A DNA stretch of 64,000 bases from the NCBI RefSeq assembly GCF_036417845.1, contig NC_089980.1, positions 49,598,501-49,662,500 of the forward strand, given 5' to 3'. Positions 53,401-57,377 of the stretch are shown here, in pieces (position 1 is the first letter of the stretch; each line of letters opens with the position of its first letter). The stretch comes from Apteryx mantelli. Taxonomy: Eukaryota; Chordata; Aves; Apterygiformes; Apterygidae. Made by a program: the position numbers and the translations under genes. The notes beneath the pieces are model-generated. The model was not told the origin of the DNA. It ran no database searches and was given only the letters and a program-made list of their open reading frames with translations.

Positions 53401-56400
53401 GAAGTTAAGCAATTAACTACATGAATTTCACCCATAAACCGAGAGAAACGCTGAAACAGAGAATACAAGCTGAAGGACTGCTGACGAGGACGGTGGTAAA
53501 CTACTGTGGGTTAGGGATCAGACTTGGAGATCCAAACAAAGCAGTCAGATACAAAACTGAAATTCTTTTTCAGCATGTTTTCCTGATGAGGTCTGCAAAT
53601 ATTCAGTATGAAAATTCTTTTGCTTCAAGTGAGCTGACCCTGAGATATGTAGTAGTGTAATTAGCAGTTACGAGAGGAAAGAATCTAAACTGCATTGACC
53701 CACATAACATACCATCAAGGGGGGATGGGGGGGGGAACAGCCCAAACCAAAAATCAGATGTCTTTTATTCTCAGCAGATGTTCAGACACTTTCTGTGCCT
53801 GCAGAAGTGGAGCTACAGCTAACAGCTTAAAATGAAACCATTCATACAACTGTTGCAATTATAATGTTGATTTCTCCAGCCAGGTGGCTAATGCCAATCC
53901 TTTGCTCATAAGAAGAAAAAAATATCCTAATACATCTTCCTCAACAAGAACTAAACCACCTCCAAAAGCTGTGAAAAAGTCAGGAGCAAGCAGTATATTG
54001 AGGCACTAGCAGGTATATAATTGGCAGCATTTGATGAATAAACAGAACTACAAAATAGGTTTTATGAAAGGCTCTTCCCTTCCTCCCCCCACTTTTAGTG
54101 CCCCAAAGAATATGCTATCATTGATGTCAGCAGGCTTTCTAAATGCAGCAATAAAACCACTATGCAACAACAAAGGGAGGCTTCGTTTAAGTTCTTGTTT
54201 CAAACAAGTTTAACATGGATTCAAACATCGTTTAGTGAAAGGGTTCAAGGATGTACATTGAGAGTGTCTTTCAGATACCAAAAGAACCTCTGTTCTCCTT
54301 CCCAGGATAAAGGAAATCTGTTTTTCTAATGGTCAAATAACGTCATTATAAAACAACAGACATAGGTAGGGTATTTGCTTAATGGTTTCAGCTTGCACTA
54401 TATATAGTTTGTGGTGATGTGCAGCTTCAACAAGCACCAGAACTGCAGGCCGATACACAAAAAGCCATCCCCACATATGATCAAACATCTGCAAATTAAA
54501 TTTATTTCACTGCTTCTTCTGGTGAAGAAGTCCTTTCCACAAGTGGTGGCTTTAGATACTATTCTACTTATTAATGCAGAGACAGCCCTATCAATCCCAA
54601 CAGGACAATAAGCAGAGTCCCCAACATGTCCTACTGAAAAGTACTGACACTAGTTTATATGAGCACAACCTTCCTGTTGTTGCATTAAAGAAAACGAAAC
54701 AAAACAACAACCCCCGCCCCCATCCTAAGATGATGACTGGAGTAAAACTGATCACTAATTCAACTCAGGAGGAATAAGAAGGGAGGATATGGATTGTAGC
54801 AAAGAGATTTGAAGAGTAAATGATGAAGGAGAATCATGTGAACACAGGAGTACAGACTGTATAATGCAAAGGCTTGTTGAAATCACAAACATGCACCATC
54901 TAACCAAAATGCTATCGTATCCAAAATGAATTTTCCTCAAATGCTTTGTCACATTTCTTTCTAGGCAGGTATTTATATATGAGAGACAGCCCACCCTGTT
55001 AGTTTTCACAGCCCATCTTTAAAATGTGCCCAGAGCATACTTCACACAGCTAAGGCAGTGTTCATAAGAAAACTGGATCTTCCACGTTAGTGAGTTAGAA
55101 GTGCATCAAGCCTTCGACATTTAAAAAGATACTATCTTAAGAAAAGTCACTACCCAGTCCATGCAATATTTCTATCTTCTGACCAGTTAGCAAAGTATAT
55201 TTTCCTCAGGCTGCAGAAGTCCTGAAACTGAAGTCCTATTTTCTATTCTGTACAAATACTGATGGTGAATAAATGTAAAACTACCTCTTTTAATGCTACA
55301 AGAGCTTCTCCTCTGTGTATTTTTAAACTGTAGCCCAGGTAAATCATGTATATGCATGTGACAGATTATTTTCCCCCTCAAGTCTAACATAAATAAGGCA
55401 CTGTGACTTTTTGTCATATTGGCATCATGTATGTGCTAAATCAGGCGGGCAAAGACCCCAAGGTTTTCCCCTCTCAGAGAAAAAAAGTCACAGTGAACAG
55501 ATTGTTCCTGTCTCCAGTCCCCCGTCACTCTTTACGATGAAGGAAAAACAAAATAGAATTAACAGGTCATATTCACTGCGGACAGAACTCAGACACCAGG
55601 GAGGGGAGAAAAAAAAGAAAGGAATTCTTTGACTGCCGGGGCATTTGTTTCTACAAGTATTAATAAGAAAGAAATAAATGTCAAGAATCAGACTAGCTAC
55701 CTAATTTCATACATAATTTTAATTTCACATAAGATAGCTCCCTACTAATTGCCATTGAATACTAGCTTGCTACTCTAGCACTCAAGCCTGAGTATTCCCA
55801 AGCAACAAGCTGCATTTCTTCTCTGCCAGCAATCACTGACTCGACACTATTCAAGTTCACCCTTTTAACATGCCAAAAGTTCACTTTTAAAGCAGTGGTA
55901 ATAGTAAAGCCTATCCAAAATAGGATAAGTAATGCAAACAATGTTACCTGAAACTAGTTGTCAATCTTACTGTCCCTGTATCAGTAGACTCAAAATAGAG
56001 TCAGAGGAGAACTAGCAGTACTTGTTCTAATTTCCAGTGATTGAAACGCATTAATGGATAATATTTTCCTAATGTTACTTATCCATATCTCCTATTCTAT
56101 GCAGGTTCTTACACCTCATTTGTTACCATGGTATTTGAGCAGCTTCCAGCTGAACATGAGACAATACAACAATTGCTGTTGGTGTCAGGAAGATTACACA
56201 GAAGAGAGGGAAGGTGAGTTCACAGGATTGCAAAGCAAGCTGAAGCACTCCATTAATTTCTACCAAGTTGTGGCCATACCAAAGTTGTTCAAGAATTCTG
56301 GTCTAGAAAATAAATAACAGTTAAAATACTGACAGAGTACAGGCATACCTCGTTTTATTGCATTTTTTTTTAAACAAATTGAAGGTTTGTGGCAACCCTG

Positions 56401-57377
56401 CATCAAGCAGGTCTATCAGCGCCATTTTTCCAACAGCGTGTGCTCACTTCAAGTCTCTGTGTCACATTTTATACAGTTATTCTAGACGTTTTTGCACACT
56501 TAATAGACTACAGTATAGTGTAAACATAACTTTTACATGCACTGGGAAACCAAAAAAATTTGCATGACTCGCTTTATGGCAGTGGTCCGGAACCGGACCC
56601 ACAATATCCCTGAGGTATGCCTGTACCAAGAATTTTCATCCCTTCAAAGACAGGAGTTATCCCTGACTATTATCCTGTTGAAAAATTACCTCAGACACTT
56701 TGATTTTGTTTCTAGAAGCACGAAAGGCAGGGCTTTCCCCCTGCTGAGTCCTGGGAGCAATAAAAGAAGAGGAAGCGCAACTCAGAGAGAAATCCACGTT
56801 TTCCTAGCATTCGGCTACTCATTAATAGCAACTACAGCAATAGAGCTATTTCCATCATTGCAGGCAATTAAACGAAAGGGAGCAGATCTACGCGTAACTG
56901 CAAAAGAGACGGCACAGCAAACTTTTGTTACGGATGATAATGGATTTATAGCAACTGATAGGCTATCAGAAATCATTTCCCCTCCGCTTCCCGCCAACCT
57001 CAGGTTGTCCATTTCTCCTTTTTTTCCTCCTTCGAAGGAAGGGAGCCCGCGGACCACCCTCAATTCAAGCAGGGGACAACTGGAGGAAAGGAATGGAAAA
57101 GTTTCCCGGCCCGCAGCCCCGCAGCCCTGCGCGGGGGCGGAGGGGGGCAGCCCCGGCCCGCAGCCACAGGTGCGGCCACCAACGGCCTCCAACCGCCGCG
57201 GGGTCCCGCGCACCTGCCGCCACCCAGCCCGCGCCCGCAGCCGCCCCGCCGCGCCCCAGCAGCCGGGGGGCGCCGCGCCCGGGCCCCGGCGGCGGGGCGG
57301 AGCGGAGCGGGCCGGAGCGGGCCGGGCCGGGCGCTCACCATGTCGTAGACGTTGAGGATCACCAGCTGGTTCGCCAT
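44483..57377 (-). CDS. DESI2: Desumoylating isopeptidase 2 (PPPDE1), complete, five coding exons
   Basis: DESI2 is a cytosolic PPPDE-fold cysteine peptidase reported to act on SUMO and ubiquitin conjugates. Minus-strand coding exons are 57339-57377, 49008-49080, 46984-47077, 46147-46288 and 44483-44716. Borders are all GT/AG and the phases join to 193 residues; human is 194, with one extra Gly after Met1. The protein starts [13 protein letters not shown], then YWMNEYTSS. The catalytic His is His29 in [11 protein letters not shown] and the catalytic Cys is Cys107 in HKNCNHFSS, both present. Exon 3 carries [15 protein letters not shown]. Exon 5 has [18 protein letters not shown] and [11 protein letters not shown], followed by an acidic then Ser/Ala-rich tail ending GRHTKL. 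Intron 1 is about 8.3 kb and holds a Tigger1-like insertion. The gene looks intact. Confidence 0.97.
49447..49469. repeat. T12-G11 junction in DESI2 intron 1
   Basis: Twelve T are followed directly by eleven G. This is an unusual homopolymer junction, prone to sequencing and replication slippage. Confidence 0.85.
50855..50874. repeat. T20 run in DESI2 intron 1
   Basis: A homopolymer of 20 T. No adjoining retroelement was recognised. Confidence 0.9.
51452..51495. repeat. Polypurine tract with G-runs in DESI2 intron 1
   Basis: A purine-only stretch of A-run, G7 or more, then GGGAGGGAG and AAGGAAGGAG. It could form a G-quadruplex or triplex. Confidence 0.85.
53036..53066. repeat. (AC)n microsatellite in DESI2 intron 1
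   Basis: A perfect AC run of about 15 units inside the first intron of DESI2. Confidence 0.95.
56340..56623 (+). mobile_element. Tigger1-like (pogo) non-autonomous DNA transposon, both ends intact
   Basis: The 284-bp element lies in DESI2 intron 1. It starts CAGGCATACCTCGTTTTATT and ends ...GAGGTATGCCTG. The first 12 bases are a perfect terminal inverted repeat, and TA target duplications lie at 56338-56339 and 56624-56625. The left part (AATTGAAGGTTTGTGGCAAC, GGCGCCATTTTTCCAACAGC-like) and the right part (CACTTAATAGACTACAGTAT, CACTGGGAAACCAAAAAAAT) match my recollection of the two ends of mammalian Tigger1. The transposase-coding middle is missing. It is an internal-deletion derivative that would have depended on a full-length element for movement. 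Confidence 0.9.

What the first reader, a model, noticed from the sequence alone, without database searches (positions are those of the whole stretch)
56340..56623. Tigger1-like transposon with intact ends in a sauropsid DESI2 intron
The sequence shows a 284-bp element with a perfect 12-bp terminal repeat, TA target duplications, and blocks nearly identical to both ends of Tigger1. I know Tigger1 as a mammalian pogo-type element. The window looks sauropsid (CR1 fragments, compact genes), so vertical inheritance at this level of similarity would be surprising. Inference: horizontal transfer into this lineage, or a broader host range than usually stated. The transposase-less form also implies that a full-length partner was once present.
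Basis: partly seen in the sequence, partly recalled or inferred. Interest (0 to 1): 0.75.

Follow-up and report, generated by a model that had tools for sequence, protein, structure and literature searches.

The report
Mammal-type jumping gene in bird-like DNA
A short, disabled copy of a transposon known mainly from placental mammals sits in an intron of a gene in DNA that looks like a bird's; it most likely arrived by horizontal transfer, and a similar mammal-bird case has already been noted in print for the kiwi.

Summary
Positions 56340-56623 carry a 284-bp element with perfect 12-bp terminal inverted repeats, TA on both sides, and 93% identity over 250 unambiguous positions (95.6% outside CpGs) to the two ends of Tigger1, a consensus recalled from memory. 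It is a non-autonomous deletion derivative lacking about 2.1 kb of its 2.4-kb parent. It lies in intron 1 of DESI2, 715 bp past exon 1. The surroundings look sauropsid, most like a bird, but the species could not be named: the own-genome search did not complete in 12 of 12 attempts. Vertical descent from the amniote ancestor is not credible at this similarity, so horizontal transfer is the best reading. It has precedent: Platt et al. 2016 reported more than twenty brown-kiwi insertions at least 97% similar to the bat Tigger1, without ruling out contamination; Diaby et al. 2022 report Tigger transfers between placental mammals and crocodilians and turtles. This locus adds a copy anchored by exact transposon ends inside sauropsid-looking gene sequence, which argues against contamination. 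New member of a known kind; modest interest.

The parts
56338..56339 (.). TA target-site duplication, left copy
   Evidence: sequence; inverted-repeat
56340..56623 (+). Tigger1-like non-autonomous element (284 bp)
   Evidence: Tigger1 ends recalled from memory
56340..56351 (+). left terminal inverted repeat CAGGCATACCTC
56340..56470 (+). block from the Tigger1 left end (131 bp), with a subterminal deletion of about 28-31 bp relative to the recalled consensus
56471..56491 (+). approximate junction of the roughly 2-kb internal deletion (poorly aligned; breakpoint uncertain)
56492..56623 (+). block from the Tigger1 right end (132 bp), with a subterminal deletion of about 16-17 bp
56612..56623 (-). 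right terminal inverted repeat
56624..56625 (.). TA target-site duplication, right copy
   Evidence: sequence
57339..57377 (-). DESI2 coding exon 1 (from ATG to the gtgagc donor)
   Evidence: (12 residues, E 0.02)
49008..49080 (-). DESI2 coding exon 2
   Evidence: edges by inspection
46984..47077 (-). DESI2 coding exon 3
   Evidence: edges by inspection
46147..46288 (-). DESI2 coding exon 4
   Evidence: edges by inspection
44483..44716 (-). DESI2 last coding exon, with stop

Best explanation
A 284-bp non-autonomous deletion derivative of the Tigger1 (pogo-type) DNA transposon, inserted by cut-and-paste at a TA in DESI2 intron 1 of a sauropsid, most likely a bird. Shown: intact ends, TA on both sides, loss of the middle of the element, and changes enriched in CpGs. 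Inferred: a Tigger1 transposase made by a full-length copy elsewhere in the genome bound the shared ends and moved the short copy; the family reached this lineage by horizontal transfer, from a mammal or from a shared third source. The copy is now a fossil that decays neutrally; no function was seen, and none was tested for.
For: Perfect terminal repeats with TA duplications. Both ends match Tigger1 as recalled: 92.8% over 250 positions, 8 of 24 CpG positions and 10 of 226 others changed. TIGGER1 is 2408-2419 bp long in four mammals, multi-copy in eutherians, with one or two degenerated copies in marsupials (PMC3517439, passages), so presence in a sauropsid is disjunct. Host: five DESI2 coding exons with GT/AG borders and a stop, the five tblastn pieces 78-96% identical to recalled human DESI2 (the 78% piece includes misaligned intron); three COX20 pieces only 57-75% identical to recalled human COX20, with a fourth, 10-residue match on the other strand (E 0.47) dropped; both genes on the minus strand. 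A CR1 relic lies at 1006-1610 (59% to recalled chicken CR1), and of the three recalled repeats tried (CR1 3' part, MIR, AluS) MIR matched once and AluS not at all. The element is less decayed than that CR1 match. Precedent: more than twenty kiwi insertions at least 97% similar to a bat Tigger1 (PMC4971623).
Against: Lack of Alu only speaks against primates; other mammalian repeats were not tried, and the CR1 comparison used one subfamily. One copy cannot show a family, and its three deletions could be private to it. No other copy turned up in 4 DNA-pattern scans and 1 protein scan of viral contigs, 1 pattern scan of bacterial and archaeal genomes, or the phage and plasmid collections; these are not vertebrate collections, so this says little either way.
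Confidence: 0.8

Rival explanations
1. The window is mammalian, or the element is mammalian contamination or misassembly in a sauropsid assembly.
For: Tigger1 is a classic eutherian family; Platt et al. could not rule out contamination for kiwi. The host was identified here only with recalled references.
Against: Clean TA-flanked ends inside intron 1 of a gene with readable exons; contamination would not normally join exactly at transposon ends. A chicken-type CR1 match, no AluS and a single MIR-like match in 64 kb, and COX20 only 57-75% like human.
Confidence: 0.08
2. Vertical inheritance: an ancient amniote Tigger1 lineage survived in mammals and in this sauropsid.
For: Tigger elements were found in 20 reptile species (PMC9219625).
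Against: Non-CpG divergence from the recalled mammalian consensus is 4.4% (10 of 226, 95% interval 2-8%), and the mammalian family is thought to have expanded after the marsupial split (PMC3517439). About 300 million years (recalled) of separate descent would leave the two lineages far more different.
Confidence: 0.04
3. A different pogo-type family that merely shares Tigger1-like ends.
For: Tigger elements are polyphyletic within pogo (PMC7325037, passages).
Against: The similarity extends over about 250 bp, not only the terminal repeats.
Confidence: 0.05

Closest known systems
Tigger1 (mammalian pogo-type DNA transposon)
   Same: Terminal repeats, TA target site, about 131 bp of the left and 132-152 bp of the right end (consensus recalled)
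   Different: About 2.1 kb missing, two further subterminal deletions; host looks sauropsid
Tigger1_MNa-like insertions in the brown kiwi (Platt et al. 2016, PMC4971623)
   Same: Tigger1 reported in a bird, close to the mammalian consensus
   Different: Those hits covered at least 92% of Tigger1_MNa, whose length I did not see; whether this host is a kiwi is unknown, and no kiwi sequence was seen here
Tigger elements transferred between Eutheria and Crocodilia or Testudines (Diaby et al. 2022, PMC9219625)
   Same: Tigger transfers involving sauropsids
   Different: Several Tigger clusters; the passages read do not say that they are Tigger1

Membership tests
Tigger1, non-autonomous derivative | Terminal inverted repeat CAGGCATACCTC at both ends | tested here: met
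   consensus recalled
Tigger1, non-autonomous derivative | TA target-site duplication (pogo / Tc1-mariner) | tested here: met
   TA at 56338-56339 and 56624-56625
Tigger1, non-autonomous derivative | Ends homologous to the full-length element beyond the terminal repeats | tested here: met
   reference recalled, not fetched
Tigger1, autonomous | Pogo transposase gene, element about 2.4 kb | tested here: not met
   element is 284 bp and is accounted for by the two ends but for about 21 bp at the junction; it is filed as a derivative, not as an autonomous Tigger1
MITE family | Many copies with the same internal deletion | not testable with these tools
   own-genome search unanswered, 12 of 12 attempts; one copy in the 64-kb window
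Horizontally transferred transposon | Similarity between hosts greater than for host genes under vertical descent, with patchy distribution | tested here: inconclusive
   4.4% non-CpG divergence from recalled consensus and literature on distribution; no genome survey possible

The most novel reading that the evidence does not exclude
Tigger1 invaded an early bird lineage (for instance palaeognaths) at roughly the epoch at which it spread in placental mammals, and there gave rise to its own short family with paired subterminal deletions; DESI2 intron 1 would be one locus where that invasion can be dated with orthologous empty sites.
Probability: 0.3. Interest if true: 0.55.

Novelty: new member of a known kind. 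Interest (0 to 1): 0.36.

Why it matters
A 2017 paper counted only seven reported horizontal transposon transfers in birds (PMC5556988, passage), and the one Tigger1-bird case that my searches turned up was left open because of possible contamination (PMC4971623). A copy embedded in a gene locus, with a defined pre-insertion TA site, makes that claim testable by a presence/absence comparison across species.

Tried and rejected
Other Tigger1 copies outside the window were sought with patterns from the element in viral contigs and genome contigs, with a recalled Tigger1 transposase in viral contigs (2 stretches matched a pattern, none confirmed), and with distant blastn in phages and plasmids. 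All empty; these are viral, prokaryote, phage and plasmid collections, so this is not evidence of absence. Rfam at gathering threshold: 0 matches in the window. tRNA scan: 0. Pfam on 8 window ORFs, chosen by me from the 210 stop-to-stop ORFs: two weak matches (GAF_3, Tectonin), both below their cut-offs. Fold of the element as DNA: the terminal repeats pair, as inverted repeats must (z -2.8); not read as functional. A bacterial promoter scan on the element has no bearing on a vertebrate locus and was disregarded. An effect on DESI2 expression was not tested. The window's stop-to-stop frame of 80 codons over most of the element (56325-56567) was not searched against any library.

Ten paper searches, in a library of open-licence PMC papers only, showed me no second report of Tigger1 in a bird; most papers in those lists I saw as listings only, seven I opened in part (PMC9219625, PMC4971623, PMC3517439, PMC5753468, PMC7325037, PMC9112768, PMC5556988). 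No supplementary file was looked at.

Full report
What is there. The window holds, at 56340-56623, a 284-bp element that begins CAGGCATACCTC and ends with its reverse complement, with TA on each side. A repeat search of 56100-56900 reports this as its only inverted repeat, 15 bp perfect when the TA and one more base on each side are counted. Perfect 12-bp pairs with TA outside, 100-3000 bp apart, occur twice in the window against 0.09 expected per 64 kb in 100 Markov simulations; the other pair (59-1133) has no listed similarity to Tigger1 and is probably chance.

What it resembles. I compared it with the ends of Tigger1 as I recall that consensus; no tool here gave me Dfam or Repbase. Both ends match strongly at this place only (E 6e-32 and 1e-32; the best match elsewhere in the window is 0.012). 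Over 250 unambiguous positions 232 agree (92.8%). Of 24 positions in consensus CpGs 8 have changed; of the other 226, 10 have changed (8 transitions, 2 transversions; K2P 0.046; 95% interval of the proportion 2-8%). That count leaves out 34 of the element's 284 positions. An alignment that takes in the ambiguous stretches gives 9.3% difference over 281 positions and a non-CpG K2P of 0.070, so the value depends on the alignment. Relative to the recalled consensus there are three deletions: about 28-31 bp behind the left terminus, about 2 kb in the middle, and 16-17 bp near the right terminus. By inspection, both subterminal deletions fall between short direct repeats of the recalled consensus. 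The published length of TIGGER1 is 2408-2419 bp in four mammals (PMC3517439, passages), so about 2.1 kb is missing in all.

Where it sits. Recalled human DESI2 finds five coding pieces on the minus strand; printed with their flanks they show GT/AG borders and a stop (read by eye). The element lies in intron 1 (about 49081-57338), 715 bp downstream of exon 1, antisense to the gene. COX20 lies 3' of DESI2 in the same orientation, three pieces within 9269-10309 (a fourth, 10-residue match on the other strand at E 0.47 was dropped). That the two genes are neighbours in the same orientation in human, at a larger distance, is recalled.

What the host is. The recalled 3' part of chicken CR1 matches once, at 1052-1610 with 59% identity; the recalled C-terminal CR1 protein matches at 1006-1348, with a weak second match at 18567-18653 (E 0.015). 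MIR gave one short match at 22251-22325 and AluS none. The COX20 pieces are only 57-75% identical to human. A 64-kb stretch so poor in CR1 and MIR fits a bird best; a crocodilian or turtle is less likely, a mammal unlikely. This is inference from recalled references: no other mammalian repeats were tried, and lack of Alu by itself only speaks against primates.

How it most likely came about. Shown: intact ends, TA duplication, loss of the middle, moderate decay enriched in CpGs. Inferred: transposase supplied by a full-length copy moved this short copy into a TA in DESI2 intron 1; the family came by horizontal transfer. In mammals TIGGER1 copies are 12-28% diverged from their consensus in the four species tabulated (PMC3517439) and 14-16% in Table 2 of PMC4971623. 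Here the comparable overall figure is 7.2% (18 of 250) to 9.3%, and 4.4% outside CpGs, against a recalled mammalian consensus. With a recalled avian neutral rate of 1-2 per thousand sites per million years, 4.4% would be very roughly 20-45 million years, with a wide interval; slow substitution in some bird lineages would make it older, and any difference between the bird and mammal family consensus would make it younger. Vertical descent since the amniote ancestor is not compatible with this similarity for a neutral sequence.

What is already in print. Platt et al. 2016 (PMC4971623; passages and the section on species distribution seen) found more than twenty brown-kiwi insertions at least 97% similar over at least 92% of the bat element Tigger1_MNa, whose consensus is almost 97.5% like human TIGGER1. 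They did not regard transfer as demonstrated: the mutation load may be within expectation, and contamination of the kiwi assembly could not be excluded. Diaby et al. 2022 (PMC9219625; [quoted passage not shown] Dupeyron et al. 2020 (PMC7325037; passages seen) confirm Tigger1 as pogo-type and Tigger as polyphyletic, and list a potential Tc1/mariner transfer between a manakin and a butterfly. A 2017 paper on galluhop (PMC5556988, one passage) counted seven transposon transfers reported in birds. Ten paper searches showed me no further Tigger1-bird report. What this locus adds is that the element is anchored by exact transposon ends within what looks like sauropsid gene sequence, which contamination does not readily explain.

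Verdict. A real Tigger1 deletion derivative, most likely horizontally acquired by a bird lineage; a new member of a known kind, with the host, the copy number and the date still to be established.

Noticed in passing
21116-21211: Hairpin with 17-nt perfectly complementary arms and 62 nt between them (among the 25 of 47 pairs shown); folds better than shuffles (z -3.4, 1 of 200 as good), no Rfam match at gathering threshold. Could be a short transposon remnant or a microRNA-like hairpin.
   Followed up: partly
1006-1610: Decayed CR1 LINE 3' part on the minus strand, about 59% identical to recalled chicken CR1; a possible second scrap lies at 18567-18653.
   Followed up: partly
22251-22325: MIR-like core-SINE match, 74% over 77 aligned positions to recalled MIR.
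   Followed up: no
9269-10309: COX20 coding sequence, minus strand, three pieces.
   Followed up: partly
12001-16000 and 56001-60000: CpG observed/expected of 0.72 and 0.77 against 0.09-0.28 in the other 14 4-kb bins: likely promoter CpG islands; the second covers DESI2 exon 1, the first lies upstream of the COX20 pieces.
   Followed up: no
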